A stretch of DNA of 64,000 nt, taken from Verrucomicrobiota bacterium. GTDB lineage: Bacteria; Verrucomicrobiota; Verrucomicrobiia; Chthoniobacterales; Terrimicrobiaceae. The notes below the pieces were generated by a model, which was not told the DNA's origin, did no database searches, and worked only from the letters and a program-made list of their open reading frames with translations. Location of the stretch: NCBI GenBank assembly GCA_026398255.1, contig JAPLTG010000032.1, positions 186,001 through 250,000 on the forward strand, written 5' to 3'. Below are positions 1,505 to 48,412 of the stretch, one piece after another. Made by a program: the position numbers and the translations under genes. Position 1 is the first letter of the stretch; every line of letters begins with the position of its first letter.

Positions 1505-1942
1505 ATGAGCCTTCGTATTGCCGTCATCGCAGACACCCACGGCCACTTGCCGGAGAAAATCCTGCCCCACCTCGCGAAGGCCGATGAAATCTGGCATCTC
1601 GGGGATTTTTGCGATTTAAAATGTTTGAGCGCCTGTCTCGCGATCGGGCGTCCATTTTACGCCGTGCTCGGCAACAACGACCTCGGCCTCGACCTGCCTG
1701 AGAAGCTCACTCTCGAGCAACACGGCCGGAGTTTCTGTCTCATCCATATTCCTCCTCGCCACCTGCCAGCGTGTGATTTTTTGCTTCACGGCCACACCCA
1801 TGTGCCGCGCGACGAGCGGGTGGGGGACTGCCGGATTCTGAATCCCGGCTCGGTCGGAAAAGCCAACAAGGGCTCGCCGGCGAGTTGGGCTTGGCTGGAG
1901 ATCGGCGCTCGCGGGGTGCGCTGGAAAATCAATCTGCTTTGA
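1505..1942 (+). CDS. YfcE/MJ0936-type metallophosphoesterase
   Basis: Predicted cytosolic binuclear metallophosphoesterase acting on phosphodiesters; the natural substrate is unknown. The 145-residue protein shows the ordered metal motifs: DTHGH near residue 9, GDF near 36, GNND near 59 (GN[HD]), GHTHVP near 98 and NPGS near 115. The ATG at 1505 is preferred over an upstream in-frame start because the beta strand SLRIAVIADTHG then begins at the N-terminus as in the family. It is transcribed divergently from nuoA with about 50 bases between the starts, and ends about 50 bases before a toxin-antitoxin pair. Confidence 0.88.
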   Translation: MSLRIAVIADTHGHLPEKILPHLAKADEIWHLGDFCDLKCLSACLAIGRPFYAVLGNNDLGLDLPEKLTLEQHGRSFCLIHIPPRHLPACDFLLHGHTHVPRDERVGDCRILNPGSVGKANKGSPASWAWLEIGARGVRWKINLL

Positions 1943-1956
1943 GCGGAAGCCCGCCC

Positions 1957-1990
1957 TTGACCGAAAAAAACATCACAATATTGTGATGAT
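1957..1990 (+). promoter_or_regulatory. Promoter and 18-bp palindromic operator of a TA pair
   Basis: A perfect 18-bp palindrome CATCACAATATTGTGATG (1971-1988) ends two bases before the antitoxin ATG at 1991. A TTGACC hexamer (1957-1962) and TATTGT (1979-1984), 16 bases apart, could be the -35 and -10, so the palindrome overlaps the -10. This is the arrangement expected for autorepression by a Phd/YefM antitoxin. The palindrome is seen directly; its function is inference. Confidence 0.75.
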
Positions 1991-2245
1991 ATGAAGACCG
2001 CCACCATTCGCGATTTGCGTTACGATTTTCCCAAGCTCGAGGCGTGGCTCGCCGGGGGCGAGGAGATTCTCATTACAAAACATTCCAAGCCGGTTGCGAA
2101 AATCTCGCTTCCGACCACTGAGGTGGCCGACAATCTCCCGCCGCATCCGGATTACGCCGCACGCCGGAAGCGGATTTGGGGTGACCGGGTTTTTACTCGG
2201 GAGGAAGTCGAGGAGATGCGGGCTTTTGAAACCGGAGAACCGTGA
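1991..2245 (+). CDS. Phd/YefM-family antitoxin
   Basis: 84-residue predicted DNA-binding antitoxin. The N-terminal half (ATIRDLRYDFPKLEAWLAGGEEILITKHSKPVAKI) has the beta-alpha-alpha-beta pattern of the Phd/YefM fold, ending in the characteristic 'ITKHSKPVA' strand. The C-terminal half is charged and probably disordered until it binds the toxin. Its stop overlaps the GTG start of the PIN toxin by four bases (GTGA at 2242-2245), so the two are translationally coupled. There is no clear Shine-Dalgarno sequence because a palindromic operator fills the leader. Confidence 0.88.
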   Translation: MKTATIRDLRYDFPKLEAWLAGGEEILITKHSKPVAKISLPTTEVADNLPPHPDYAARRKRIWGDRVFTREEVEEMRAFETGEP

Positions 2246-2694
2246 TCGCTTATCCTGACACGAGTTTTCTTTGTTCGCTCTACCGGGAGCAGGAGCATTC
2301 ACCATTAGCCGACGACTATCGTGATGCCATGACCGAGCCACTTTATTTTACGCGGCTGCTGGAATTCGAATTTCTGCAATCCATCGAGCTGCAAGTCTGG
2401 CTTCACGCGGCAGATCGGAAAAAGGGTTATCCTCGCCATATCGCCGACCAAATGATCGCCGACTGGCAGGCTGATGTTGCAGCAGGTTTGAATCGAGTGG
2501 TTCCTTTCGATATGGATGCCGTGCTGGGTTTGGCGTCCACCTACTCGCGGCAAAAAACAGCGAAGGGCGGTCATCGCACCCTCGACATTCTTCATGTGGC
2601 GACGGCGGTGCATCTACGCGCCAGTGAATTTCTAACCTTCGACGGCCGTCAGAAAAAAATCGCCCGCCACGCGGGGCTGAAGGTTCCTTTCTAA
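2242..2694 (+). CDS. PIN-domain toxin (VapC-like ribonuclease)
   Basis: 150-residue predicted Mg-dependent endoribonuclease neutralised by the upstream Phd-type antitoxin. The acidic PIN residues are in place: PDTSFL (D6), the Glu-containing EFEFLQSIEL helix, LDILHVATA, and the C-terminal LTFDGRQ. All catalytic carboxylates appear intact, so the toxin is probably active. The GTG start at 2242 overlaps the antitoxin stop. The gene converges on trmD with only nine bases between the stops. Confidence 0.88.
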   Translation: MIAYPDTSFLCSLYREQEHSPLADDYRDAMTEPLYFTRLLEFEFLQSIELQVWLHAADRKKGYPRHIADQMIADWQADVAAGLNRVVPFDMDAVLGLASTYSRQKTAKGGHRTLDILHVATAVHLRASEFLTFDGRQKKIARHAGLKVPF

Positions 2695-2703
2695 AAATCG
2701 CCG

Positions 2704-3375
2704 TCAGCTTTCGAGCAGATCGGGACGGCGTTTTTTAGTCCCTTCCAGAGCGGCCTCGCGGCGCCATTTTTCAATCGCCGCGTGATTTCCTCCGAGCAAA
2801 ACCTCGGGAACTTTCCAACTTTTGTAGTCGGCTGGTCGCGTGTAGTGCGGGTGATCGAGAATCCCATCCGCAAAAGAATCCTGCTGCGCGGAGTCGTCGT
2901 CGCCAAGCACTCCCGGGATCAGGCGAACCACGGCGTCGGTCACGACCAGCGCGGGCAGAACGCCGCTGGTGAGCACATAGTCTCCGATGGAAATTTCATC
3001 ATCCACCAAGTGGTCTGAGACGCGTTGATCGATGCCTTCGTAGTGCCCGCAGAGGAGAATCAAATTCTTTTCCTGAGCAAGTTCACGGGCGATGGCATCG
3101 GAAAATTTCCGCCCCTGCGGAGTCATCAAAATCACCTTCGATTCCGGCGAACGAATCTGTGTCAGCGCCAGATCGATCGGCTCGATTTTCATCACCATTC
3201 CCGGCCCGCCGCCGTAGGGCGCGTCGTCCACCGTGCGGTGGCGGTCACTCGTCCAATCGCGCAAATCCACCGCCTCGAGCTGGGCGAGGTTTTTCTCCTG
3301 CGCCCTCTTCAGAATGCTCTCGGAAAGCACGCTTCGGCAGACTTCGGGAAAAATAGTGAGGATTTGGATTTTCAA
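2704..3375 (-). CDS. trmD: tRNA (guanine-N1)-methyltransferase
   Basis: Methylates G37 of tRNAs using S-adenosylmethionine, which prevents +1 frameshifting. Trefoil-knot SPOUT motifs are clear: LLCGHYEGIDQRV, SIGDYVLTSG, LPALVVTDAVVRLIPGVLG and the DSF/HPHYTRP region. No ATG lies near the expected N-terminus; the TTG at 3375 places LKIQILTIFPEV at the start exactly as in the family and gives about 224 residues. An ATG further upstream would run into the divergent penicillin-binding protein gene. Only 24 bases separate the two starts. The usual rimM/rplS neighbours are absent. Confidence 0.92.
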   Translation of the reverse strand: MKIQILTIFPEVCRSVLSESILKRAQEKNLAQLEAVDLRDWTSDRHRTVDDAPYGGGPGMVMKIEPIDLALTQIRSPESKVILMTPQGRKFSDAIARELAQEKNLILLCGHYEGIDQRVSDHLVDDEISIGDYVLTSGVLPALVVTDAVVRLIPGVLGDDDSAQQDSFADGILDHPHYTRPADYKSWKVPEVLLGGNHAAIEKWRREAALEGTKKRRPDLLES

Positions 3376-3399
3376 GCGGACCTGCTTTAATCCGCCGCC

Positions 3400-5337
3400 G
3401 TGGCCAAGTCCAGAATCAGCAAAAAAACCTCGCACCCCTCGCGCGGTTCGAAGCCGCTCGCTCGCGAAAGCCGCCACAAGCGCCATGTCCTGTGGGTCTC
3501 CCTGTTTAAGATCGGCTTCGTCACATTCCTCCTCTGGGCTGCGGTGGCAGGCGTCTACTACCTCTGGGCGCTTAATCTCGACCTGCGCCGCATCCACGAG
3601 ATGAGCGAGCGCTCGGTCGTTTATGATTATCAGGGAAAATACTACTCACGCCTTGCCGGCGAGAACCGCGAGGTCGTGCCGTTCGACAAAGTCTCGAACC
3701 ATTTCGTCAACGCCCTCATCAGCCGTGAGGACACTCGGTTCTACAGCCATCACGGCGTCGATCCGATCGGCGTCGCCCGCGCCGTTGTGCGCAACCTCAT
3801 GCTTGGCGGCTTCCGTGAGGGCGCCAGCACGCTGACACAGCAGCTTGCCAGAAACAGTTTTCCTCTCGGTGGAAAAAATCTCCACCGCAAGATCATCGAG
3901 GCCGCTCTGGCATTCCGCATCGAGACCGAGTTGACCAAAGAGGAAATCCTCGAGGCCTATGTGAACCGCATCTACTTCGGCTCGGGAACCTATGGTGTCG
4001 AGGCGGCGAGCCAGATTTATTTTGGCAAGCCAGCTTCGAAACTAAACCTCCAAGAGTCCGCGACGCTCGCCGGGTTGATCCGAAGCCCGAACCGCTTTTC
4101 TCCTCTCAACAACCCCGAGGGCTCGATCCGCGAGCGCAACACCGTCCTCGGCCGCATGCTCGAACTTGGCTTCATCACCCAATCCGAACACGACGAGTCC
4201 GCCGCGAGTCCGCTCGTCGCCATGCCCCGCACCAAAACCTCCCCGGAAGACAACTGGGCGATGGATGCCATTCTTCGCGAGCTCGAACTCGTCCTCGATG
4301 ACGGTCAGATGGATGGCGGGGGATTGAAAATTTACACCACCATCGACGGCCCGCTCCAACGCGCCGCCGAGGAATCCGTTGCCGCGCGGTTAGTCCAAGC
4401 CGAAGCCTTGCCGGGCTACCCGCACAAGCCTGCGGCGGATTTTAACGAATCCGTTCTCGATGCCGAAAAATCCGCGCCGTATTTGCAAGCTGCCGCGATT
4501 GCTTTGGAAAACCAATCCGGCGGAGTCCGTGCGATCGTCGGGGGGCGCGACTTCTCGAAGAGCAAATTCCAGCGCGCGTTGTTCGGAAAACGCCAAGCGG
4601 GCTCGGTCATCAAATCCTTCGTTTTCGCCAGCGCCTTCGAGGCGGGACTTTCTCCGAACGAATCTGTCTCCGACGACCGCATTCAGTCGGGCGAAATCCC
4701 GCGAAAGTTCGGATCCTACGATCCCGGAAATTCCGACGGCGAGTATCGTGGACTCCAGCCCGCCGGCGTCGGCTTGATCGATTCGCGCAACACAATGACC
4801 GTCCGCATCGGCATGCGCGCTGGGCTCGACCGCATCGCCAACATGATTCAGCGCGCCGGCATCGCCGAGGATCCGCCGAGGTTTCCCGCCCTCTGCCTCG
4901 GGGCATTTGAGACGAGCCTGAAAGACATCACTTCGGCCTACACCGCCTTTGCCACCGGCGGAGTGAAGTTGCAGCCCTACATCATCGACCGTGTTTTGGA
5001 TTCCTCCGGCAATGTCCTCTACAAATCCACTCGCGGAAGGATTCCTGTCATCAATCCCGCCGCCGCGCAAATGACCGCCTCGCTCCTCGAGCAAGTCGTG
5101 ACGCAAGGCACCGCCACTCGCGCCAGCACCCTTGGGCTTCGCGGCTACGGTGCGGGAAAAACTGGAACGACGAATAATTACCTCGATGCCTGGTTTGTCG
5201 GTTTCGACAAAAACCTTACCTGCGGCGTGTGGGTCGGCTTCGACAAGCCCCGCCCCATTATGAAAGGCGGCTACGGCGGCGCGCTCGCCCTGCCGATCTG
5301 GGTCGATATTATCGAAGCCTCGAAGCGCGGCTCGTAG
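3400..5337 (+). CDS. Class A penicillin-binding protein (transglycosylase/transpeptidase)
   Basis: Bifunctional peptidoglycan polymerase of 645 residues from a GTG start, with an N-terminal cytoplasmic basic segment and one membrane anchor (about residues 31-57). The GT51 domain shows the catalytic-Glu motif EDTRFYSHHG (E110) and GASTLTQQLARN (141-152). The transpeptidase domain has all three active-site motifs: SVIK (402-405), SRN (462-464) and KTG (587-589). The length fits PBP1a/2a-type enzymes without large insertions. It is divergent from trmD and is followed 68 bases later by purF on the same strand. Confidence 0.94.
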   Translation: MAKSRISKKTSHPSRGSKPLARESRHKRHVLWVSLFKIGFVTFLLWAAVAGVYYLWALNLDLRRIHEMSERSVVYDYQGKYYSRLAGENREVVPFDKVSNHFVNALISREDTRFYSHHGVDPIGVARAVVRNLMLGGFREGASTLTQQLARNSFPLGGKNLHRKIIEAALAFRIETELTKEEILEAYVNRIYFGSGTYGVEAASQIYFGKPASKLNLQESATLAGLIRSPNRFSPLNNPEGSIRERNTVLGRMLELGFITQSEHDESAASPLVAMPRTKTSPEDNWAMDAILRELELVLDDGQMDGGGLKIYTTIDGPLQRAAEESVAARLVQAEALPGYPHKPAADFNESVLDAEKSAPYLQAAAIALENQSGGVRAIVGGRDFSKSKFQRALFGKRQAGSVIKSFVFASAFEAGLSPNESVSDDRIQSGEIPRKFGSYDPGNSDGEYRGLQPAGVGLIDSRNTMTVRIGMRAGLDRIANMIQRAGIAEDPPRFPALCLGAFETSLKDITSAYTAFATGGVKLQPYIIDRVLDSSGNVLYKSTRGRIPVINPAAAQMTASLLEQVVTQGTATRASTLGLRGYGAGKTGTTNNYLDAWFVGFDKNLTCGVWVGFDKPRPIMKGGYGGALALPIWVDIIEASKRGS

Positions 5338-5405
5338 CAAAAAACTCGCTTGGGATTTCAAAAACCTTGAACCCGAGAACAGGGACGATATTTTCGCCGG
5401 CTCGC

Positions 5406-6860
5406 GTGAATAACAGACCGACCACTTCGCACAAGCCGACCCACGAATGCGGAGTGTTCGCGGCGTTTAATCATCCCGACGCCGCGATGCTGACCTACTA
5501 CGGACTCTTTGCTCTTCAACACCGCGGCCAGGAAAGCGCAGGCATCGTCGCAGGGGGAGGGGACGGCAAGCCATTCCGCACCCACAAAGGCATGGGCCTC
5601 GTCCCGCAGGTCTTCCAACCCGGCGACCTTGAAAAACTCCAGGGCAACCGCGCGATCGGCCATGTCCGCTACTCGACCACCGGCTCGAGCAATCTCAAAA
5701 ATGCCCAGCCCTTCCTCGTTGATACCGCCCGCGGCCAGCTCGCGATCGCTCACAACGGAAATCTCGTCAATGCCGCCTCGCTTCGCTCCGAACTTGAAGA
5801 GCGCGGGTCTATTTTTCAAACCACGGTCGATAGCGAGATCGTCCTGCACCTTTTGGCCCAACCTCCAGGCGACGGGGGAGGTCTTGCTTCGCTTCGCCGG
5901 CTTGAGGGCGCCTTTTCCATCGTGCTCATGGGCGAGAACGAAATTATTGGCTTCCGCGACCCGCACGGCTTTCGCCCCCTCTGCCTCGGAAAACTCGACG
6001 GCGGCTATGTGCTGGCCTCGGAGAGTTGCGCGTTTGATTTGATCCATGCCGAATTCGTCCGCGAACTCGAGCCGGGCGAGGTTTTGATCATTGATGAAAA
6101 CGGACTCCGGAGCGAGTGGCCCTTCCGCCGCGAACGCAAGGCATTGTGCGTCTTTGAGTATGTGTATTTCGCTCGGCCAGATAGCAATATCGACGGCCGC
6201 AATGTCAGCAAGGCCCGGGTTGAAATGGGACGCGAACTCGCGCGATTGCATCCCGTCGAGGCCGACCTCGTCGTTCCCGTGCCGGATTCCGGGATTTTCG
6301 CCGCGCTGGGCTTTTCCGAGGAGAGCGGGATTCCATATTACCCCGCTTTCGTTCGCAACCACTACATCGGCAGGACTTTCATTCAGCCGACTCAAATGAT
6401 CCGCGACTTCAATGTCCGCGTGAAGCTCAACCTCATCCGCTCCGCCGTCGAGGGCAAGCGCATCGTCGTGGTGGACGACTCGATCGTCCGTGGCACCACC
6501 GCCCGCTCACGAGTCGTCAACCTTCGCGAGAACGGCGCGACCGAGGTCCACATGCGCATCAGTTGCCCGCCGCACAAGAACGCCTGTTACTACGGAATCG
6601 ATTTTCCCGACCCCCAAAAACTCCTCGCCAACCAGTGCACCGCCGCCGAGATTTGCAAATACCTCGGCGCCGATTCCATCGGATACCTCAGCGCCGAGGG
6701 AATGGTTCGCGCAACGGGTCGACCCCAAAACGAATTCTGCCTCGCGTGTTTTAACGGAGACTACCCAGTTCCTTACGACGATAAGTTCGATAAACTCATC
6801 ATGGAGCAGCGCCAAGGCAAGGCCCGCCTCCTCGAAGAACCCACCAACCGATTGTTTTGA
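5406..6860 (+). CDS. purF: Amidophosphoribosyltransferase
   Basis: First committed step of purine synthesis: PRPP plus glutamine gives phosphoribosylamine. The 484-residue product has the N-terminal nucleophile glutaminase domain beginning HECGVFAAF (Cys15), followed by HRGQESAGI and GHVRYSTTG. The PRPP loop is VVDDSIVRGTT. The GTG at 5406 is chosen because it leaves only a short propeptide of the sort normally removed before the catalytic Cys; longer in-frame starts overlap the penicillin-binding protein gene. C-terminal Cys-containing segments (CPPHKNACYYG and FCLACFNGDYP) resemble the iron-sulfur-binding PurF class. It overlaps purM by four bases. Confidence 0.95.
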   Translation: MNNRPTTSHKPTHECGVFAAFNHPDAAMLTYYGLFALQHRGQESAGIVAGGGDGKPFRTHKGMGLVPQVFQPGDLEKLQGNRAIGHVRYSTTGSSNLKNAQPFLVDTARGQLAIAHNGNLVNAASLRSELEERGSIFQTTVDSEIVLHLLAQPPGDGGGLASLRRLEGAFSIVLMGENEIIGFRDPHGFRPLCLGKLDGGYVLASESCAFDLIHAEFVRELEPGEVLIIDENGLRSEWPFRRERKALCVFEYVYFARPDSNIDGRNVSKARVEMGRELARLHPVEADLVVPVPDSGIFAALGFSEESGIPYYPAFVRNHYIGRTFIQPTQMIRDFNVRVKLNLIRSAVEGKRIVVVDDSIVRGTTARSRVVNLRENGATEVHMRISCPPHKNACYYGIDFPDPQKLLANQCTAAEICKYLGADSIGYLSAEGMVRATGRPQNEFCLACFNGDYPVPYDDKFDKLIMEQRQGKARLLEEPTNRLF

Positions 6861-7912: not shown

Positions 7913-8144
7913 AGAGTAAAACCGGAATCTCACACGAAGTCGCAGAGCCACGAAGTGGAGGATTAGGACCCGCAAATCGACGCGAATAAGGGATGAGGGG
8001 CAAAGGCAATTTATCCAATATTGCATCGAACTTCTCTCTCCCGGTTCAAATTACCCGCGCACAGCAATTTTTTCCCACCCGAAGCCAATCAGTCGCTCCA
8101 TTCGGCAAAATTTACCCGCCCTTTAGAAAAAAATTTCAGATTTG

Positions 8145-8173
8145 ACCACAGAGGACACAGAGAGCACAGAGAG
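8145..8173 (+). repeat. Interspersed 'accacagaggacacagag' repeat, copy 1
   Basis: The sequence accacagaggacacagagagcacagagag recurs in inverted orientation at 8335-8358 and again at 48383-48412. All copies sit outside genes. No coding role is evident. Confidence 0.65.
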
Positions 8174-8180
8174 TAGGTCT

Positions 8181-8246
8181 ATGTAGGGCAGGCGTCCCGC
8201 CTGCCATCGAAAGAGTTACGCCGCAATCGGGACGCCTGCGCTACAT
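8181..8246. repeat. Imperfect inverted repeat / hairpin element
   Basis: Arms 8181-8198 (atgtagggcaggcgtccc) and 8229-8246 (gggacgcctgcgctacat) are complementary at 17 of 18 positions around a 30-base loop. The left arm overlaps a second, tighter hairpin GGCAGGC-N5-GCCTGCC (8187-8205). This has the look of a mobile palindromic unit. Confidence 0.6.
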
Positions 8247-8334
8247 TCCAGAAGCTCAAAAAACGATCGCTATTGGCGATATGATTTGTGTTTCTCTCTT
8301 GTCCAAAGCCGATCAATCTACTGCAACCCACTCC

Positions 8335-8358
8335 ATCTCTGTGCTCTCTGTGTCCTTT
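8335..8358 (-). repeat. Interspersed 'accacagaggacacagag' repeat, copy 2 (inverted)
   Basis: Contains tctctgtgctctctgtgtcc, the reverse complement of the core of the copy at 8145-8173. The two copies flank the hairpin element at 8181-8246. Confidence 0.6.
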
Positions 8359-8476
8359 GACTCGCTCGCTCCCGCTCGTCTCGCCCTTCGGGCCAACTTG
8401 CGTTGGTCTATCTCAAAGGCTCCCGCCTTTTCGATTTTGGTCAATCCTTCCGTTCTTCTCCCCTTGGCAATCCAAG

Positions 8477-8493
8477 TTGGCACGGAGTTTGCT
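8477..8493 (+). promoter_or_regulatory. Sigma-54 (-24/-12) promoter of the flagellin gene
   Basis: TTGGCACGGAGTTTGCT matches the RpoN consensus TTGGCACG-N4-TTGCW at every fixed position, with GG (8479-8480) and GC (8491-8492) exactly ten bases apart. Transcription would start near 8504, giving a leader of about 48 bases that contains the inverted repeat TGACCC-N6-GGGTCA (8516-8533). No strong Shine-Dalgarno sequence precedes the ATG at 8552. The match is direct observation; RpoN control is inference. Confidence 0.85.
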
Positions 8494-8551
8494 CTACAAC
8501 TTTCGCAGTGAAACCTGACCCAGGATAGGGTCACAACCCAAATATATCATT

Positions 8552-9718
8552 ATGATCTCGATCAATGTTAACCCCGCAGCCAGCGGTGCAGGCCTCAACC
8601 TCGGAAAAGCCAACGAAGCCCTCCAAAAGAGTCTCTCCCGACTCTCCAGCGGACGCCGCATCGTAACCTCCAGCGACGACGCCGGCGGCCTCGCCGTCTC
8701 CATGAAAATGGCAGCTGCCCAAAAGCGCACCGAAGCTACGGCTATCAACCTCCGCAACATGGTTTCTTTCTTGGATACACAAGATGGAGCCTTCAAGGTT
8801 GCTGATAAAGTGGTTAGCCGCATGTCGGAACTTGCTGCTCTCTCTCGCGATGTGTCTAAAAACTCGGGAGATATTGAGAATTACGACAAGGAATTCTCCA
8901 ACCTCAAGTTGCAAATGATGAGTTTGGCAACAGAGAAGTTTAATGGTGTGCCACTATTCGATGCATCCACAGAAGTTGGCAAAGTTTTTACTGTCCCTAC
9001 GTCCGAAGATGGGTCTCAAACTACATCTGTTACCCAAGCCGGACTCGCATCCGATCCTATGATTAAAATGATGAACGAGGGATTTCATACATTTGAGATT
9101 GAAGGAAATAAGTTTATAACACCATTTAGTTCAGATATTACCGCATCGACCGGCTTCACGGCTTATCAAATTCCTGGTGGTGTTCTGTCCCCTGTTGAGT
9201 TAACGGGAACTTTTGATACCACTGGAACGCCTTCTTTGACTGTCCAAGTTACAGGTATTATGACTGTTGCAGGGACCCCTCCAATTCCATCCCAGTCTAC
9301 GATAACATCTACCGGTGGTAGCGTTGCTATTTCAAGAGCTTCAACTTCTGTTCTTGATGCCACAGATATCGATGATTTTGTCCAAATTGAAAATTCTAGT
9401 GGCCAAACAGTTCGGAATACAACCCTAAACTATTCAAATTCTGACGAATATGCATTCCTCACTCAAGAGGCTCTTCAGCAGCTTGCCGATATGCGAGCAC
9501 AAAATGGTGCAGAAATGAGTCGTATCAACTTTGCTCAAGATCTCTTGAACATCAACGCTGTCAACCTTGAAGCCGCGAACAGCCGCATCATGGATGTGGA
9601 TGTCGCTGCCGAGAGCAGTCAACTCGCCCGCTTCCAGATTCTGCAGCAAGCCGGCACGGCGATGCTCGCCCAAGCGAACACTAGCCAGCAAAGCCTCGTC
9701 CGCCTGCTCCAAGGCTAA
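8552..9718 (+). CDS. fliC: Flagellin
   Basis: 388-residue filament subunit. The D0/D1 ends are conserved: the N-terminal segment has NEALQKSLSRLSSGRR and DDAGGLAVSMKM, and the C-terminal segment has NLEAANSRIMDVDVA followed by QQAGTAMLAQAN and a final RLLQG. 'SSGRRI' replaces the common 'SSGLRI'. The central region (about residues 140-300) is rich in Thr, Ser and Val, is AT-richer than the ends and is the expected variable surface domain. The gene has its own sigma-54 promoter and an intrinsic terminator, so it is monocistronic. FlgN-like and FlhF-like genes lie 1.2-1.7 kb downstream. Confidence 0.95.
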   Translation: MISINVNPAASGAGLNLGKANEALQKSLSRLSSGRRIVTSSDDAGGLAVSMKMAAAQKRTEATAINLRNMVSFLDTQDGAFKVADKVVSRMSELAALSRDVSKNSGDIENYDKEFSNLKLQMMSLATEKFNGVPLFDASTEVGKVFTVPTSEDGSQTTSVTQAGLASDPMIKMMNEGFHTFEIEGNKFITPFSSDITASTGFTAYQIPGGVLSPVELTGTFDTTGTPSLTVQVTGIMTVAGTPPIPSQSTITSTGGSVAISRASTSVLDATDIDDFVQIENSSGQTVRNTTLNYSNSDEYAFLTQEALQQLADMRAQNGAEMSRINFAQDLLNINAVNLEAANSRIMDVDVAAESSQLARFQILQQAGTAMLAQANTSQQSLVRLLQG

Positions 9719-9867: not shown

Positions 9868-10188
9868 GTGACATACACAGATTCACAAAGACTGCTGGAA
9901 GCGCCAAAAGCGTTAGCATCGTTAACTATACTTGACAAACCCAAAATTATCAAGTATTTATGCCCATATGAAACGACAATTGAACTTCCTGACGCGATTT
10001 TGGAGCGAACAAAGGTGGCGGCTGCGCATCGCCGCACCTCGATGAAAAATTTGGTGATTCAAGGGCTTGAGATGGTTCTTCAAAATGAAGTGGTTCCTGC
10101 CCAGCCTGCTGAGGCGTTGGCTCGGCTCCGTGGAGGTTACCACTTGGGAGGCCGCCCAATGACCCGCGAGGAGATTCATGTCCGGTGA
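9868..10188 (+). CDS. VapB-like antitoxin with a disturbed start region
   Basis: The conserved part is TTIELPDAILERTKVAAAHRRTSMKNLVIQGLEMVL, a ribbon-helix-helix-like segment typical of VapB antitoxins. The only standard in-frame start is the GTG at 9868, which adds an unconserved 34-residue leader. The natural-looking start, ATG at 9968 (ATGAAACGACA), is one base out of frame: inserting one A would give the classical MKTTIELPD N-terminus. A strong promoter ends just before that ATG. The start may therefore be broken by a one-base deletion, or the base call may be wrong. The stop region overlaps the toxin start (10178). Confidence 0.65.
   Translation: MTYTDSQRLLEAPKALASLTILDKPKIIKYLCPYETTIELPDAILERTKVAAAHRRTSMKNLVIQGLEMVLQNEVVPAQPAEALARLRGGYHLGGRPMTREEIHVR
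9932..9960 (+). promoter_or_regulatory. Sigma-70-type promoter of the vapBC pair
   Basis: TTGACA (9932-9937), a 17-base spacer, then TATTTA (9955-9960). Transcription would begin at about the ATG at 9968, implying a leaderless message. The promoter lies inside the GTG-initiated frame, which argues against that long frame being the natural product. Confidence 0.6.
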
Positions 10189-10594
10189 TCGTTTTTTGGA
10201 TACGAATATTCTTCTTTACGCCTACGATCTGGATGCACTTGCTAAACGGTCTGGCGCGATGGCAATCGTCGAGGAGGCGTGGCGCCAGCCTGAGCGCATA
10301 GCCCTGAGCGTGCGGGTGCTGCAAGAATTTCATGTCAATTTTGTTCGAAGTGGTCGCCCGGTTGCTGAGGCGACATTGATTGTTGGAGATTTTAGTTCAT
10401 GGATTGTCATAGAAAATTCTCTAACTCTGTTTCAGCGGGGGCTATGGCTTCAGTCTCGGTGGCAAATTTCGCTCTGGGATGCCATGATCTTGGCGGCAGC
10501 CGAAAGTAGTGGTGCCCGCGAACTACTCTCAGAAGATCTCAACCATGGCCAGAAATATGGCCTAGTTTCTGTTATTAATCCATTTATCGCATAG
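10178..10594 (+). CDS. PIN-domain toxin (VapC)
   Basis: 138-residue predicted endoribonuclease. PIN carboxylates are intact: FLDTNILLYAYD (D8), RVLQEFHV (Glu), SLWDAMILAAA (Asp) and SEDLNHG (Asp). It overlaps the antitoxin reading frame by 11 bases. The pair is inserted between flagellin and the other two flagellar genes. If the antitoxin start really is broken, an intact toxin without a working antitoxin would be hard to tolerate, which favours either an alternative start or a base-call error upstream. Confidence 0.87.
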   Translation: MSGDRFLDTNILLYAYDLDALAKRSGAMAIVEEAWRQPERIALSVRVLQEFHVNFVRSGRPVAEATLIVGDFSSWIVIENSLTLFQRGLWLQSRWQISLWDAMILAAAESSGARELLSEDLNHGQKYGLVSVINPFIA

Positions 10595-10867: not shown

Positions 10868-10884
10868 CTGGCACAAGTCTTGCT
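10868..10884 (+). promoter_or_regulatory. Sigma-54-like promoter before the FlgN-like gene
   Basis: CTGGCACAAGTCTTGCT keeps GG (10870-10871) and GC (10882-10883) ten bases apart and matches TGGCAC-N5-TTGCT. The predicted start is near 10895, three bases before the ATG at 10898, so the message would be almost leaderless. This favours the ATG over the in-frame GTG at 10892. Confidence 0.7.
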
Positions 10885-11370: not shown

Positions 11371-12516
11371 ATGGCTCAAAAATCGCTTCCGATCACTCCT
11401 GGTCAAAAATACAAATTTGTCGTCAAGTCGGCTGAAGAAGCCGCTGCGATCATTCGCGACAAGCTCGGAGAAATGGCGCAGGTCATTTCGGTCCGTCAGG
11501 TCGAGGGGGAGGGGTTGGCCCGTTTCCTGAAATCCCCGAAGCTCGAAATCATCGCACAGGTCCCGGTGACTCCCGCCGAAAACACCGAGGCAAAAGTTTC
11601 CTCTGAGGCCCCGGCCGATTCTGCCGACCTGGGCGAGGAGTTGGAATCCCCGCAACGCCGCAAAGCCGTTCGCTCTCGCAAGCCTCGCGCGACTTCACCA
11701 TCTGCCGAGCCGCGCCGTGAAGAGACGGATTATGTTTCCGAGACTTTGGTCCGCGCGATGTTCAACAATCTCCCCACGGGCAGGCTGTGGACGATTTTGT
11801 CCAAGGCGGGCATCCCGACGGAATTTCTTGCCCAGATCGGCGAGCAACCCGAAACCCGCGGCCTGAATGACCAACCTCTCCAGACGGCGATTTCGCGCTT
11901 TGCGTTGTTGATGCGCGACCGCGCGCCGGGCCGCTCCCTTTCGCTTTCAAACCGCGTGGTGTTCTTTGGTTCGCCGGGCTCGGGATCGACCACCGCGCTT
12001 TGCAAGCAGCTATCCTCCGATGTTTTTCTGCGCGGTCGCCAGGCTTGTGTGATGAAGCTGGATGCCGACGAGCCGAATTCGAGCGAGGGTTTGGCGATGT
12101 TTTGCGAGGCGCTGGGCGTTCCGCTCCTCCGCACCACCGCCGAACTCCGCAAAATCCCCGAAGAGGCGGCGGTGTATTTTGACATGCCTGGCATGGTCCT
12201 GACGGGAAAAAATATCCGGCATATTCAGAAAATTTTCGATGAGCTCGGCATTTCGTCCCGCGTATTGGTGGTGAATGCCGCCTACGAGCGCCAACTCATC
12301 CAAGAGGCCTACACCCGCGCCAGCGCCATCGGGGCCACCCATGTCGTCTTCACGCATGTGGACGAGATTCCGCGTTGCGGCAAACTTTGGGAGTTCGTGC
12401 TCGATGACGGCTTGGTGCCGCTCTTTGCCAGCACGGGCCAAAACATCGCGAGCGATTTCGACCGTCACATCATTGACTTACTGGTGCGGAGAACGCTCAC
12501 CGCCGGTGACGAGTAA
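11371..12516 (+). CDS. FlhF-like SRP-type GTPase with degenerate nucleotide site
   Basis: 381 residues. The N-terminal B-domain resembles FlhF (SAEEAAAIIRDKLGEMAQVISV), followed by a Pro/Ser/Glu-rich linker (about 62-120), an N-domain and a G-domain. FlhF places flagella at the cell pole. Here the P-loop reads GSPGSGSTT (200-208), with Ser206 where the catalytic Lys should be. The G3 box reads DMPG (271-274), and the G4 box reads THVD (328-331) rather than TKLD. The rest of G4/G5 (FTHVDEIPRCGKLWEF, then PLFASTGQNIASDF) is clearly FlhF-like. It probably binds nucleotide poorly or not at all. It sits in the flagellar island. Confidence 0.8.
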   Translation: MAQKSLPITPGQKYKFVVKSAEEAAAIIRDKLGEMAQVISVRQVEGEGLARFLKSPKLEIIAQVPVTPAENTEAKVSSEAPADSADLGEELESPQRRKAVRSRKPRATSPSAEPRREETDYVSETLVRAMFNNLPTGRLWTILSKAGIPTEFLAQIGEQPETRGLNDQPLQTAISRFALLMRDRAPGRSLSLSNRVVFFGSPGSGSTTALCKQLSSDVFLRGRQACVMKLDADEPNSSEGLAMFCEALGVPLLRTTAELRKIPEEAAVYFDMPGMVLTGKNIRHIQKIFDELGISSRVLVVNAAYERQLIQEAYTRASAIGATHVVFTHVDEIPRCGKLWEFVLDDGLVPLFASTGQNIASDFDRHIIDLLVRRTLTAGDE

Positions 12517-35709: not shown

Positions 35710-36708
35710 TTAGCCTGCGTCCTGCTCTTCCTCTTCTGCAGAGTCACCGCCGCCGTAGCCGAGGACTTCCACGGTGATTAGTGATGGTTTTTCCTCGGTT
35801 GTCTCAGGGCGTTCCTGAGCCTGATTGGCCATGCTCTGCGCGGCGGAGGAAGAGGCTGCAGTGCTGCTCGACGCGGACGGGGCAACCGAGACCGGGGCTG
35901 CTGCTGCGGGTGCCGAGGAAGGGACGCCGGCTGAGGTTCCGCCAGTGGAAATGTTATCGGCATTGATCACGGAGACGGCAGCGATATTCAAGTTTCCTGT
36001 GCTTTGGATGCCGGCGTCTCCCGCATCCACGGTTCCTTCGGGAGCGAGGAGGTAGACATTGCCAGGTTCGACATCCTCGACAGCGGCGAGAACGCCGATG
36101 CCACCGCCTGTGGCTAGGCCGCCGAGGTCGGTTTTCACATCCGCGCTGGGTGAGTCGATGACGACACGGGTGGGAGGAGCTGTGACGACGGTTTTAGGGG
36201 ATGTGCCCGCAGCGATGTCGCCCGTGGTGGACCAGATCGTCATATCGCCTCCGCGAAGCGTGAAGATACGGGCGCGACCGATATCCACATCGCCATCTGT
36301 GAGAATAGAGACTCCGCCACCAAACTCCGTGACGATGCCCGGTGGCGTAAGAGGATTTCCAAAAATGTCCGAGGCCATGGTGAGGCCGCCGCGCGGAGCA
36401 GCCAAAGCGATCGAACCCCCGCTCACAGTCCGGATGTCACGCGAGCGGGTGAAAATGTCGCCTGTCCCATCGAGTGCCGCAAAGACAGTCTCCACGGCCT
36501 CCAAAGCGGGTTCGTAGCTGGAAGTCTCTGGATACGCTTCGCCTGTGGCCGCGATAATGGAATACAGGGTTTGCAAACCAGCGATCGCGATGTGCTCTGG
36601 ATCGTCAGAGAGCGGTTCCACTATTGAGCCGCTCGGGGCGATGGCTTCGAGATTCTCAAAATCCAAATTGCTACCAGCGAGGCCGAGAGCCGGAGCGCCC
36701 CCCGCCCC
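35710..36708 (-). CDS. C-terminal part of the TpsA adhesin, out of frame with the main part
   Basis: About 330 codons continue the adhesin without a start of their own: PALGLAGSNLDFENLEAIAPSG, then beta-solenoid-like segments (GGLTMASDIFGNPLTPPG, VNSGDVDIGRARIFTLRGGD-type repeats) and a Ser/Ala/Pro-rich then acidic tail ending ITVEVLGYGGGDSAEEEEQ. The frame differs by one base from the upstream part. Removing one G from the G6 tract at 36698-36703 joins the two into one protein of about 3,896 residues. Either the tract is phase variable, the gene is truncated, or one base is miscalled. Confidence 0.75.
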   Translation of the reverse strand, partial: GAGGAPALGLAGSNLDFENLEAIAPSGSIVEPLSDDPEHIAIAGLQTLYSIIAATGEAYPETSSYEPALEAVETVFAALDGTGDIFTRSRDIRTVSGGSIALAAPRGGLTMASDIFGNPLTPPGIVTEFGGGVSILTDGDVDIGRARIFTLRGGDMTIWSTTGDIAAGTSPKTVVTAPPTRVVIDSPSADVKTDLGGLATGGGIGVLAAVEDVEPGNVYLLAPEGTVDAGDAGIQSTGNLNIAAVSVINADNISTGGTSAGVPSSAPAAAAPVSVAPSASSSTAASSSAAQSMANQAQERPETTEEKPSLITVEVLGYGGGDSAEEEEQDAG

Positions 36709-39700
36709 ACCTATGCAGCGAAATGATCGAGGCGCCTTCAAATGGCAGGTTGGGATTGCGGGAATTGCCGATGCTGATGATGCCCGTGCCGGTGCCATCG
36801 GACAGATTTTCTCCCGTGCCGAGATCCAGATTCGCGCCAGCCAAGACCTCAAGGAATCCCGGGCCTGAAATCTGGATGTCACCGGCAAGCGCAGTCACTG
36901 CTTTGTTATTCGCTGTGATGCGTGGTGCATCGAGAACGACATTTCCGGCGAGAATGTTCGATGCCTCGGTGCGAAGTGTCGCTGCTTCGTTGTAGGGGAT
37001 GATGTCGCCTGCCGCCGAGACGATGGAGATATCGTTGGCATCAAGATTCTGGAGGTAAAATGCCACATCGGAGATCGAACCTCCGCTGGTGATTTTTGAG
37101 AACTTGGGCGCGTAGAGGACGAGGCCGGAGATATCGCCGTTGCCTGTGTAAACTCGGACGGGTTCGGTGTCGCCCGCATGGAGTAGCGAGTCTCCATGTC
37201 GAAGCCTCTTCAGATCGATAGCCGCATCGTTGCCAGCATAGGAGCCGGTTTCGCCAAGGGCTTTGTCGATGTTTGCGAGGAAGTTTGCGGAGGACTCGTA
37301 AAGGACGCCCGATTCACCTGCATATCCGTAGTAGCTGAGAGGAGCGGTTGTTCCTGGTATTGCGGCGGGATTGGCGTCCGAGAGGTTGATAGTCGAGGAA
37401 ATCCACCCCATGAGCGAGTAGAGATTGCCCGCTTCGTCCTGAAACTCCGTTTTGCCTGCAGGTTGAAGGCCATTAACCGATTCCGCCGCGACGATTTCAA
37501 GATTCCCACGCGAGGCAGGAGAAAGGATTAGGGATCCAATAGTGTTCACACTTCCAGCAAAGGCACCAACTTTCAGCGTCGGAGGAATGAGATTCATCAC
37601 ACTGCCGAAGCCCTCGAGCGTGGATTCCGAGAGTCGTGTCCAAGGCTGCGAGTTTGAAGAATAAATATCCGCGCCTTCGACATTGAAGAGGTTCTGCTGC
37701 TGGATCCAAGCGGTGAGGATCGGTTTTGCTCCGAACTCCAAGGGCAGGATTGTGGATGACCGGAAGGTGACATCGCCGCCGAGCGACTTCACATCCACGC
37801 TGGAGTCTGGAGAGAAGGTGCTGAAGTAGGATTTATACCAGAACTTGTTTCCCAACCCAGCCGGCATGAGGAAGGCGTTGGCGATTGGGCCGAGCAGGAT
37901 GTCTTGTTTTGCGGAAACCTCGAACGAACCCTTGCCAACAAAGAGAGCCGTGGGCAGCCAGGTTTCTGGCAGGAAAATTTCCGGCTCGGTGCTGGTCAAC
38001 AAAGACTCGCTGTAGGCACCGAGTGCTCCCAATAGTCCCAAAGAGGGCGAGCGGGCCGCATTCGTCTTCACCTCGCCACCGGCCTGCAAGATGCCTTGTC
38101 CACGCTCGGCGTAGTAGAGGCCTCCATCAATATTTCTGCCGGCTTCGATCTTCAAATCGCCACCACCGAACTCGATGAGATTTGCTAAGTCGGGTGCTAG
38201 ATTTTCCTCGGCACCAATTCCAGCCATGCGGGCATTGGTGGGGGAGACTGCATCGGCATTGACGATGTCGTTTTTCGCGACAAGCGCGATGTCACCGCCA
38301 GCGAGGGTTCCAAAGCCTTGGAAGAAGTTGCTGTAATCGATCCACCAAGCGGTGGAAGCGGAGGAGTCCACGATTGTATCGCCATTACTGTCTTGGAATT
38401 CGATCGCACCGAATTTGCCTGTCGCGGGATCGACATGGCCGCGGCGATACAGCCAGTTAGAAGTGAACTGGTGGCTGGAATCCGGAATGATCGAGATGTT
38501 GTCTTCGGAGTCTGTGAACTGAGTCACCCTGGCAATGTCGTTACCCGCGAAAATTTGAAGGTTGCCACCTGCCATGGCCCACTGAGGTGTAAATGCTTGA
38601 GAAGGGCGGCCCATAGATCCCTGCTCAGGATGCGAGGTTGGGTCGAAAGCCACAATCGGTGTGGAAAAATCCCCGTCTGCAAGAACCCTCGTTGCATCGG
38701 GAACCGCAACGCCTGCCGTGTAGATGGTGGCAAATTGGTTCCGGAGCTGGACATCCCGTCCGGCATTGACCTCGATATCCCCGGTGCCGGTGCGAACGAC
38801 CTCATAGCGTGTTCCCTTGTCTTTGAGGAGACCTGTTCCCTCGGTAATGACATTGCCCTCTTCGTCGTAGGTTCCCTCATCGATTTCGGTGAGGTTGATG
38901 CGGAGATGGTTTGCCGTGGTTGCATATTGTCCAGCACCAGCATCAACTTGCGGAACATCGGGGTTTGTATCGGGGTTGTTTGAGTTCGCAACGGCTGGAT
39001 AAAACTCTCCTACAACCACAGAGCCTTTGCCTTCCTCTAGGAGGTCTTCGGATAAGATGGATTTCGCGTTGGCCGAAGCCAAATCCGATCCTGCAGTGAT
39101 TGTGTAGCTCCAGGATTGGAAGTTGGTCGGAAGGTTCGAATTGATCGTCTGGAGTTGTGCCAACCATAGTCGCGAGTGGCCGTTTTCCTCGAAGCTCAAG
39201 TTGTTGGTGTAGATAGCCGGGTCTTCCGCGCCAGGCTGGACCGAAACAAAACCGTCGCTGAGGGAGTTGTTAAAAACGATGTCTCCCGAGGCGCGTAGGG
39301 TGAGAAGGCCCGGAGCGTTTTTGCTGCCGTAACGCATTGCGGAGAGATCCCAATCGGCGGCGCTTTTGCCTTCGATATCGTCCGAGCCCGTGGGATTCGC
39401 GAGGCCGAGAGTCAGGTCGCCTGTCCTATTGATGATTTCAAAACCTGGCGCAACCACGGTTTGGGCGGAGAGGTCATCACTTCTGCCAGCGAGCAAGCGG
39501 GATTGGATAGTGGCTTCGTTGGTCATGAAGCTCTGGGCGTCTGCGTGGATGGCATCGCGCAGGGCGATATTCATTACTCCCCCCAGTGCCGTTCGGTCGA
39601 ATAGACGGTAACCCTCGAAAATAATGGCCGATGCCCCCTCGATCGTGCCGGCGAGAGGATCGATCAAAAGATCAGTGTTGCCATCGTTCCTCGGAGCGCG

Positions 39701-42700
39701 GAGATGGAGTCTGCCTTGGAATTTACCCAGCGAGGCGCTGCTGCCGGTATCAAGGTAGCCACCAGCGACATAGTCATCTACGCCAAGAAGAATTTGGGAT
39801 CCGGCTCGAATGGAAAGCAGTGCCGTAGGATCGATGGCGCCATTGATTTGCGAACCGGCAAACAGCTCAACCATCCCACCTTTGCCTGCGGAGTTGAAAT
39901 TTTCCCCCTCCACGGAAAGGAGGGCCGATTCCGCGAGTGTCAGGCTGCCAGAGGCTGCCAGCGAAATTGTTCCGCCGGTTTTTCCGGACGCGTCGATCCC
40001 TGCAGAAACCCTAATGGATCCGGCATCCGTGCTAAGTCGGAACTCTCTTGATGTGACTTGCTGATCCACCAAAACATCGCCGGATCGAACGCGAAGGCTT
40101 CTCAGCTCATTAAAGCCGCCATCTTCCAGAGGGGTGTTGATCTCCGCAAAATCACCGGTCGTTCCGACATCAAGAATGAACGATCCTCCTTTGAATCCTG
40201 TCGCCGATTGGCCGAGCAGGGTTCCTTGATTGGTGAACGATCCAGCGCTTGCGGTGATCTCCAGAGTTCCCGCGCGACCCCCGTCATCATCTCCCTTGAC
40301 CGAGAGACTCGATCCTTCGGTGAGCAGGATGTCGCCGTTGTCCGAAGTGATGCGGATGTTACCTGCGTCAGCAAACTTTACGACATCGTAGAAGGTTCGT
40401 GAGCTGCCGGCCACGCTCAAAGCCGAGCTGATGGTGACATCCCCGTTCTTGGCGCGGATATCGAGTTCGCCGCTCGGAAGTGTGATTTCGGAGCCAATGG
40501 TGACGGAGCTACCGAAGAGGGAGAGTTTGGCGCCGAGTTCGCTGGCCACATCGCCCGCTGCCTCGGAGTAATTGATATTGAGGCTGCCATCGGACTCGAT
40601 GAGGTAATCGGAGAGCCGGAATGAGGCGATGGTGGGCGTGAGAAAATCCAAGTCACCAGTTCCACGCAGTGTGCCGCTATTGGTTATGATCGTTCCCTTC
40701 TCGGACTCAAATCGGGCAAGATCGTAGCCCGCGACAGTGAACTCTCCCTTGCCAAGTCGAAGGTGATTCGATTGGAAGGAAATCTGTCCCGCCCGGGAGG
40801 TCTCGGCAGGCGCAGCGACCGCATTCGGGTTCGAGAGCAGCAGGTTTTTTGCTTTAACCGCAACCTCACCGCCGTTGCCGAGAATGCCGCCGGATTCAAG
40901 CGAGAGGGTGGTGAGATTTTCCGAACCAAGTATTCCCGAGCCAGCGATTGTGAGGGAAGAATAGGCTTTGAGGGTTAGTGAATCGGATTGGTTTAACAGG
41001 TCTAAAAAACCGCCGCCGAGTCGGAGAATATCGGCATTGTCGGGTTCGGTTCCCTCGAGATCCACGAGCAGGGTTCCTGAACCAATCGAAATCCGGCGTG
41101 AGTCGATGAGTGCTGATTCAGAAATCAAAGCGCGACGGGAAGAGTCCAGCGAGATCGAACCTCCGGAGAGCGCGACATCGTCTCCGATGGTGAGAGAGGC
41201 TTCATTTTCCTCAATGCTGCCAGTTCTGCTTAGGCTGGAGGAGTTATTGGCGTCCACACGAACGAAAGCACTCGAGCCCTCTGTCGTGAGGTCGCGGGGT
41301 GCGGAGGAGGGGTTCTTAGTTTGGATAGAGCTACCCGCGCCAAGGGTGAGACTGTTTTTTGCTGCAAGAATAATGTCGCTGCCTTCCAGAACAGCCCCGT
41401 CCAGCAAGAGGGAATCGGCTTTGACATCCACCCGTGTGCCGGAAGCGGTTCTTACGCGTTGGCCACCTACCAGCAAGCTTTCCGCTTTCCAGGAATTCAG
41501 AATGGCGGCATTCAGGAAAACCTCCGAGGCCGCCTCTGGATCATTGCCAATCGTGATTCCCGCCAGGCTGCTAATGTCGATCGCTGCGCCCTTGCCCCCG
41601 GCGGAAGCGGTTTGCACCTGACCGAGAAGGGAAAGGGTGCTTTCGCCGTGGATGGAAAGTGAGCCGGAGTCCATCGGCAATGGTTGATTAACGCTGGTGC
41701 GCGCAGCGGCAGCGGCGGATTTAATGAAATCATTCGCAGAGTAAACGGCATATTCCGCGCGATTCGCCAAAACATCGGGAGAGAGGATTTCGTAGCTGCT
41801 CCGCATTGGTGTCGCTTGATCCGGCTTCGTGAAGAAATTCGAACGATAACCGGAGGCGAAGGACGCTCCCTCGGCATTTACGAATCCTGCAGATTTGGAT
41901 GAGGTCGGCGTAACAAGTCGCGCACCCGGCAGCAAAGCGTAGCGTCGCGGCAGCAGGGTGTAAGTGCCCGCCGGAAGGCCATAACCACTGTCGAGAGTGA
42001 TTCGGTCACCAATTTTCAAGCCCGAGGTGTAGCCAATGTCTCCTCCCAGAGAACTGGCGTAGTCGCTGGAATTGAAGAGCGCGTAGGGCGCAAGAGGAGC
42101 TTTGAACCCAGGAATGACGGCGAAAGACTCGGGCACTTCCACCCAATAGGCCGTGCGACCCGGAGTCGGGATGCTCCCGTTAAAATCCTGAGGACTTAGG
42201 GCCATTCGTGCCGAGTATTGCCGTGCATTGTGTGAAACCAGATCACCCGCCGAGTAGTCCGCTCCCGAGTTCCATGCCACCGGGCTGCCAAGAATATCCA
42301 CGCTGCCACCGGTTCCGGAGACCCAGCGGTAGGCCATCAAATCCCCGCCGCCGCGAAGGTCGATAAGCGAGCCAGCCTCTTGATTGATTCCCTGTCCGGA
42401 GACAGTGATTGTCTTTTCAGGCATGCCGGTTGAGGTAACATTCACGCCCCGAGGATCGACCCAGGTATTTCCGTCAGGGCTTATTCCAAATGGGATTACA
42501 ACTCCTTGGCCGGTTGCGGGATCAATGGCCGAGACTGATGTGGTGCTGCCAGCAAGAAGGTTGATTTCAGAGGCAACCGGAGTGGCCGTTTCCGCACCTG
42601 CGACTTGGTTCACCGGGCCGTCGATATCCTCGGTCGCTGTGTTCAAGTCAGAGCCATCCCATCCCAGAGTGATCGAGCCGAATGGTGCGCGCAGGGTTCC

Positions 42701-48382: not shown

Positions 48383-48412
48383 CTCAGTGTTCTCTGTGTC
48401 CTCTGTGGTTAA
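48383..48412 (-). repeat. Interspersed 'accacagaggacacagag' repeat, copy 3
   Basis: ctcagtgttctctgtgtcctctgtggttaa, the reverse complement of the family at 8145-8173, here lying between the ppiC-like and coiled-coil genes of the adhesin operon. Confidence 0.65.

What the first reader, a model, noticed from the sequence alone, without database searches (positions are those of the whole stretch)
8477..8493. Consensus sigma-54 promoter in front of flagellin
TTGGCACG-N4-TTGCT matches all fixed positions, with the correct 10-base GG-GC distance, and ends 58 bases before the ATG. The promoter predicts RpoN plus an enhancer-binding activator governing late flagellar expression in a group where flagellar regulation is poorly known.
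Basis: partly seen in the sequence, partly recalled or inferred. Interest (0 to 1): 0.6.

Follow-up and report, generated by a model that had tools for sequence, protein, structure and literature searches.

The report
Sigma-54 flagellar switch in Verrucomicrobia
The stretch in front of this flagellin gene is a conserved sigma-54 promoter, and following it up reveals a flagellar control circuit found across a class of Verrucomicrobia in which rod operons appear to start transcription almost exactly at their start codons.

Summary
The site is present before the orthologous flagellin in all 10 other genomes of the genus examined.

The genome has one rpoN and three sigma-54 activators. Only one, E18 (1.4 kb right of the window), follows flagella: 15/16 genomes of the flagellated genus, 0/10 non-flagellated genomes of the family. 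Its likely enhancer, GGCA-N5-TGCC, is helically phased upstream of flgB (36/81 regions; shuffles 0.4).

(1) Sigma-54 sites of the flgB, flgF and flhF operons end 13-16 nt before the ATG, predicting leaderless mRNAs. For flgB, 38 of 56 genera across the class have gaps of 11-16 nt, with a sharp edge at 11.
(2) The flagellin leader has a GGA-loop hairpin like a CsrA site. Such hairpins occur in 37/51 verrucomicrobial flagellin leaders (shuffles 2.4), with compensatory changes; csrA and fliW are adjacent.
(3) Other flagellins lack canonical sigma-54 sites; several show sigma-28-like promoters.

All of this is sequence evidence; no transcript or binding was measured.

The parts
8477..8493 (+). Sigma-54 (-24/-12) promoter of the flagellin gene
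   Evidence: Exact match with GG-N10-GC; 0.0025 expected; conserved in 10 other genomes of the genus
8504..8551 (+). Predicted 48-nt flagellin leader; predicted +1 at 8504 (8504-8507)
   Evidence: 12 nt downstream of the C of GC; leader conserved almost base for base in the genus. Start not mapped
8516..8533 (+). Leader hairpin UGACCC-AGGAUA-GGGUCA with GGA in the loop, candidate CsrA site
   Evidence: Conserved in the genus; GGA-loop hairpins in 37 of 51 verrucomicrobial flagellin leaders vs 2.4 in shuffles; covariation in the hexaloop type
8552..9718 (+). Flagellin gene (388 aa)
   Evidence: Pfam Flagellin_N and Flagellin_C
8104..8116 (.). Enhancer-like palindrome GGCAAAATTTACC (one base off GGCA-N5-TGCC), 373 nt upstream of the promoter
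   Evidence: Related motif lies at -43/-44 before the orthologous flagellins
8149..8359 (.). Inverted-repeat element (24-nt arms, 96% complementary) between the enhancer-like site and the promoter, probably an insertion
   Evidence: spacing compared with relatives
10868..10884 (+). Second sigma-54 site, 13 nt before the ATG of a flgN-like gene upstream of flhF; predicts a leaderless mRNA
   Evidence: CTGGCACAAGTCTTGCT; gap of 13-14 nt conserved in L088, L095, L097, L113
10898..11320 (+). Small helical protein, FlgN/FliT-like by appearance only
   Evidence: No Pfam or NCBIfam match
11371..12516 (+). flhF
   Evidence: NCBIfam FlhF 3.7e-14 (below its cut-off), Pfam SRP54 GTPase 2.7e-8

Best explanation
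The site is the working sigma-54 promoter of one flagellin gene and belongs to an RpoN flagellar regulon. RpoN-polymerase waits at -24/-12. The activator E18 binds GGCA-N5-TGCC enhancers on the promoter's helical face and opens the complex on a flagellar assembly signal, as FlrC, FlgR and FlbD do in other bacteria. The rod operons flgB and flgF and the flhF operon have sigma-54 sites so close to the ATG that their mRNAs are leaderless. The flagellin instead has a 48-nt leader whose GGA-loop hairpin lets CsrA control translation, with FliW as the likely CsrA antagonist. Several other flagellins in the group are left to sigma-28. Shown by sequence: the site and its conservation, rpoN, the activator's distribution, the enhancer motif, the spacing, the hairpin, the csrA-fliW pair. 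Inferred: binding, start sites, signal and direction of control.
For: Exact and conserved promoter. rpoN with three domains. E18 in 15/16 genomes of the flagellated genus and 0/10 of the non-flagellated relatives, unlike E20 and E21. GGCA-N5-TGCC in 36 of 81 upstream regions vs 0.4 in shuffles, only at N5 and with helical phasing. flgB sigma-54 site in all 60 class-level loci examined, 54 at a score reached by 1.9% of shuffles. Genus-level gaps 11-16 in 38 of 56, none below 11. Codon periodicity begins at the flgB ATG. GGA-loop hairpins 37/51 vs 2.4 with covariation. csrA and fliW adjacent.
Against: No transcript, binding or genetic data. E18 was picked by distribution, not by binding. In this genome the enhancer-like site is 373 nt away and one base off consensus, and none was found near the flhF-operon site. 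The window leader has no clear Shine-Dalgarno, so how CsrA would block translation is unclear. The leader alone does not fold better than shuffles. Related genomes are not independent samples.
Confidence: 0.8

Rival explanations
1. The flagellin is driven mainly by sigma-28 (FliA), as in enteric bacteria, and the sigma-54-like sequence is minor or accidental.
For: A FliA-family sigma factor is present next to motA and motB, and several other flagellins of the group have TAAAG-N15-GCCGAT-like sites.
Against: No sigma-28-like site was seen within 160 nt of this flagellin or its sigma-54 orthologs. The sigma-54 site is conserved at its fixed positions while its spacer varies.
Confidence: 0.06
2. 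The sigma-54 promoter is real, but the activator is E20 or E21 rather than E18.
For: All three have receiver, AAA+ and Fis-type HTH domains.
Against: E20 and E21 have 68-80% orthologs in family members without flagella; E18 has none closer than about 45% there.
Confidence: 0.12
3. The short flgB gaps do not mean leaderless mRNAs: transcription also starts further upstream, or translation starts at a later codon.
For: Own flgB has GAGG just before the ATG, which a longer transcript could use. 17 of 56 genera have gaps of 22-32 nt.
Against: Codon periodicity starts at the ATG; a conserved M-I-[DE] N-terminus sits there across the class; most short-gap loci show no Shine-Dalgarno; gaps stop sharply at 11, where the start site would lie.
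Confidence: 0.25
4. The leader hairpin is a stability or attenuation element, or a site for another RNA-binding protein, not a CsrA site.
For: The window leader lacks the second GGA at a Shine-Dalgarno that classic CsrA targets have.
Against: The loop is fixed as GGA, often ANGGA, while the stem varies with compensation; csrA and fliW are adjacent in the genome; the same motif type is the proven CsrA site in C. jejuni flaA (PMC4894983).
Confidence: 0.2

Closest known systems
Polar-flagellate RpoN programme with FlgR/FlrC/FleR/FlbD activators (PMC7064773; PMC3096577)
   Same: RpoN plus an NtrC-family activator for rod genes and some flagellins
   Different: E18 is below the cut-off of all named equivalog models; enhancer GGCA-N5-TGCC; predicted leaderless rod operons; the paper does not mention Verrucomicrobia
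Campylobacter/Helicobacter split of flagellins: flaA by sigma-28, flaB by sigma-54 (PMC4894983, PMC3372290)
   Same: One flagellin behind sigma-54, others sigma-28-like; CsrA and FliW present; the sigma-54 flaB leader of C. jejuni also has GGA motifs and binds CsrA
   Different: Unrelated phylum; here the sigma-54 flagellin leader is itself a conserved hairpin and lacks a Shine-Dalgarno
C. jejuni flaA leader, CsrA-FliW control (PMC4894983)
   Same: ANGGA in hairpin loops of a flagellin leader, supported by compensatory changes; csrA and fliW
   Different: Single hairpin in the window gene; CsrA binding not tested
Leaderless mRNAs of C. jejuni/H. pylori (PMC3847290)
   Same: Start codon at or next to +1 without a Shine-Dalgarno
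   Different: Those are reported behind sigma-70 promoters and are poorly conserved; here the promoter is sigma-54 and the spacing recurs across a class

Membership tests
Sigma-54-dependent promoter | TGGCAC-N5-TTGC-type element with GG-N10-GC | tested here: met
Sigma-54-dependent promoter | rpoN in the genome | tested here: met
Sigma-54-dependent promoter | Enhancer upstream for an activator | tested here: inconclusive
   Clear in relatives (-43/-44) and before flgB and flgF; in the window one base off consensus and 373 nt away
Sigma-54-dependent promoter | Transcription start 12 nt after GC and RpoN-dependent | not testable with these tools
   Needs RNA and a mutant
Flagellar NtrC-family activator (FlrC/FlgR/FlbD type) | Receiver, sigma-54 AAA+ and Fis-type HTH domains | tested here: met
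   loop GSFTGA, a variant of GAFTGA
Flagellar NtrC-family activator (FlrC/FlgR/FlbD type) | Equivalog-level match to FlbD | tested here: not met
   389 bits against a cut-off of 750; FlgR domain model 331 against 750. Filed as similar in working, not as FlbD
Flagellar NtrC-family activator (FlrC/FlgR/FlbD type) | Occurs with flagella | tested here: met
   15/16 vs 0/10 genomes
CsrA-regulated flagellin leader | GGA in the loop of a leader hairpin | tested here: met
   8516-8533
CsrA-regulated flagellin leader | csrA and fliW in the genome | tested here: met
   C42:99302-99851
CsrA-regulated flagellin leader | Second GGA at the Shine-Dalgarno | tested here: not met
   No Shine-Dalgarno in 8534-8551
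CsrA-regulated flagellin leader | CsrA binding | not testable with these tools
   Needs a gel shift
Leaderless mRNA (flgB, flgF, flgN-like/flhF operons) | Promoter spacing that puts +1 within about 5 nt of the ATG | tested here: met
Leaderless mRNA (flgB, flgF, flgN-like/flhF operons) | Mapped 5' end at the start codon | not testable with these tools
   No transcriptome available

The most novel reading that the evidence does not exclude
Across this class of Verrucomicrobiota the middle flagellar operons are transcribed by RpoN as leaderless mRNAs, with the start codon held against the sigma-54 start site, while flagellins keep a structured CsrA leader. Rod parts would escape CsrA and filament parts obey it, sorted by leader alone.
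Probability: 0.5. Interest if true: 0.68.

Novelty: new variant of a known kind. Interest (0 to 1): 0.52.

Why it matters
I found no paper on flagellar gene regulation in Verrucomicrobiota in the library searched. The sequence evidence gives a testable circuit for a whole class: activator, enhancer motif, promoter and leader control. Conserved leaderless spacing behind sigma-54 promoters would tie promoter architecture to the mode of translation in a way I did not find described.

Tried and rejected
Relaxed -24/-12 searches with 1-2 mismatches are near background and were not used. The exact sites on C7, C37 (79929) and C39 (62638) have no clear gene start just downstream and may be chance. 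Folding the window leader alone gave no signal, so the hairpin rests on comparison. GGCAN5TGCC genome-wide is at background (54 vs 49 per strand), so it means something only next to sigma-54 sites. I first read the 10898 ORF as FlgN; the true FlgN (Pfam 6.6e-18) is in the flg operon. No sigma-28 site was found for the own genome's C5 flagellins with a simple pattern.

Full report
OBSERVATION. The 17-mer TTGGCACG-GAGT-TTGCT is at 8477-8493 as described, 58 nt before the ATG (8552) of a flagellin gene. GG-N10-GC spacing is correct. The chance expectation in the window is 0.0025 for the whole motif. Allowing mismatches destroys the signal (54 found, 62 expected), so the claim rests on the exactness of the site and on conservation.

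ORGANISM. The window is C42:186001-250000 of a 2.6-Mb assembly in 44 contigs. The nearest named relatives are Spartobacteria/Terrimicrobiaceae MAGs of Verrucomicrobiota. In its genus (g1) 14 of 16 genomes have flgB; none of the 10 genomes from other genera of the family does.

CONSERVATION OF THE PROMOTER. Orthologous flagellins in 10 further genomes of the genus all carry the site, 53-59 nt before the ATG. In 9 of the 11 genomes, own included, every fixed position is identical, while the four spacer bases differ among most of them. Flagellins of other families of the order and of Opitutae, and the further flagellins of the own genome (cluster on C5, L147), show no canonical sigma-54 site; one further flagellin (L038) has TGGCATAGAATCTGC. 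Several of the flagellins without a sigma-54 site, two of them in the same genus (L105, L106), have TAAAG-N15-GCCGAT-like sigma-28 sites. The genome encodes a FliA-family sigma factor next to motA and motB. So flagellins appear to be divided between two sigma factors, as in Campylobacter, where flaA is FliA-dependent and flaB RpoN-dependent (PMC4894983).

RPON AND THE ACTIVATOR. One rpoN with all three Pfam domains is present. Three proteins are full sigma-54 activators. The one called E18 here (C42:251391-252806, 1.4 kb right of the window) has 75-99% identical orthologs in 15 of 16 genomes of the flagellated genus. The non-flagellated genomes of the family have nothing closer than about 45% over most of the protein. 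E20 and E21 do have 68-80% orthologs there. E18 is therefore the flagellar candidate. It lies below the cut-off of every named NCBIfam equivalog, so I call it similar to FlrC, FlgR and FlbD, not a member of those families. Its sequence shows the usual receiver residues (VVDD, IFLDMEL) and GSFTGA in place of GAFTGA.

ENHANCER. Upstream of the sigma-54 sites of flgB and flgF lies a palindrome GGCA-N5-TGCC. It occurs in 36 of 81 upstream regions against 0.4 in shuffles, and other spacings give 0-2. The centres cluster near -50, -60, -81, -93, -102 and -114, a period of about 10.5-11 bp (Rayleigh p about 1e-8, optimistic because sequences are related). Before the sigma-54 flagellins of the genus a variant GGCA-N5-6-T[T/G]CC sits at -43/-44. 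In the window the matching GGCAAAATTTACC is at 8104-8116, 373 nt away. A 211-bp inverted-repeat element (8149-8359) lies between and looks like an insertion. Activators of this class can act at a distance, so the promoter may still work; that, and binding of E18 to the palindrome, are inference.

LEADERLESS ROD OPERONS. In the own genome the sigma-54 sites of four flagellar units end 13-16 nt before the ATG: flgB, the ORF upstream of flgB, flgF, and the flgN-like/flhF operon in the window (10868-10884). The flagellin (58 nt) and non-flagellar sites such as amtB (about 44 nt) have longer leaders. For flgB this was followed outward. Of 30 loci in the order, 26 have a site and 25 of these have gaps of 11-15 nt (L132 read from the second of two in-frame ATGs). 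Of 60 further loci in the class all have a sigma-54-like site, 54 with a score reached by 1.9% of shuffled sequences. Grouped by genus, 38 of 56 have gaps of 11-16 nt, one has 18 and 17 have 22-32; ten genera sit exactly at 11 and none below (L264 was read from an in-frame GTG because its nearest ATG lies inside the motif). With +1 twelve bases after the C of GC, a gap of 11 means a one-base leader. Codon periodicity (variability 0.10/0.05/0.21 by codon position against about 0.5 upstream) begins at that ATG. The natural reading is that the start codon is pressed against the transcription start. In C. jejuni the leaderless mRNAs are described as preceded by sigma-70 promoters and poorly conserved between species (PMC3847290). 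I found no report of conserved sigma-54 leaderless flagellar operons, in a library that lacks most subscription journals.

LEADER HAIRPIN. The flagellin leader (about 8504-8551) is conserved almost base for base in the genus and contains UGACCC-AGGAUA-GGGUCA (8516-8533). GGA-loop hairpins occur in 37 of 51 verrucomicrobial flagellin leaders against 2.4 in shuffles, and A.GGA loops in 27 against 0.4; CCT, TCC and GAG loops stay near background. In 15 hexaloop examples all five stem pairs show changes on both sides, exceeding shuffled and slid controls. I chose these examples because they form the hairpin, so the percentage paired is by construction; the changes on both sides are less affected. 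csrA and fliW lie side by side at the end of the flg operon. CsrA sites of this type, ANGGA in loops with compensatory changes, control C. jejuni flaA (PMC4894983). The window leader differs from classic targets in lacking a Shine-Dalgarno with a second GGA.

MECHANISM PROPOSED. RpoN with E18 switches on the rod operons, flhF and one flagellin. Rod mRNAs are leaderless and so should be beyond CsrA. The flagellin mRNA carries a hairpin so that its translation can be held until FliW removes CsrA. Shown: the sequences, their conservation and distribution. Inferred: protein-DNA and protein-RNA binding, start sites and order of events.

VERDICT. As a single promoter it is a new member of a known kind. 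The class-wide leaderless spacing behind sigma-54 is a new variant that an RNA experiment could settle.

Noticed in passing
L147 (G000:C5), about 1690-5574: Cluster of at least four further flagellin genes with GGA-loop leader hairpins; the first two are broken after about 42 codons, either by assembly collapse of repeats or as pseudogenes.
   Followed up: partly
Window 8149-8359 and 48383-48407: CACAGAGGACACAGAG-type repeats; the first pair forms an inverted-repeat element in front of the flagellin promoter.
   Followed up: partly
L105, L106, L101, L103, L109, L110 and L147 flagellin leaders: A further shared block GGTGAGGTC(A/G)AACACC...GGCCCG lies upstream of the GGA hairpin and could be a second leader structure.
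   Followed up: no
Window 9868-10594 and 2242-2694: Two PIN-domain genes; the first, with a small partner ORF, looks like a toxin-antitoxin pair between the flagellin and the flhF operon.
   Followed up: no
Window 36671-47401, - strand: A 3576-aa ORF with a TPS secretion domain (1.1e-18), a giant two-partner-secreted protein.
   Followed up: no
L025:5493-7449 (G000:C34): Sigma-54 site before an amtB gene followed by a PII gene, the expected nitrogen branch of the RpoN regulon.
   Followed up: partly
L024:4505-5831 (G000:C33): Sigma-54 site 65 nt before a gene with a FlgT_N match (1.2e-6), a family known from Vibrio flagellar motors.
   Followed up: no
L023:6066-6581 (G000:C28): A 171-aa protein without family match, with its own sigma-54 site 16 nt before the ATG, directly upstream of flgB; possibly an unrecognised flagellar protein.
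   Followed up: no
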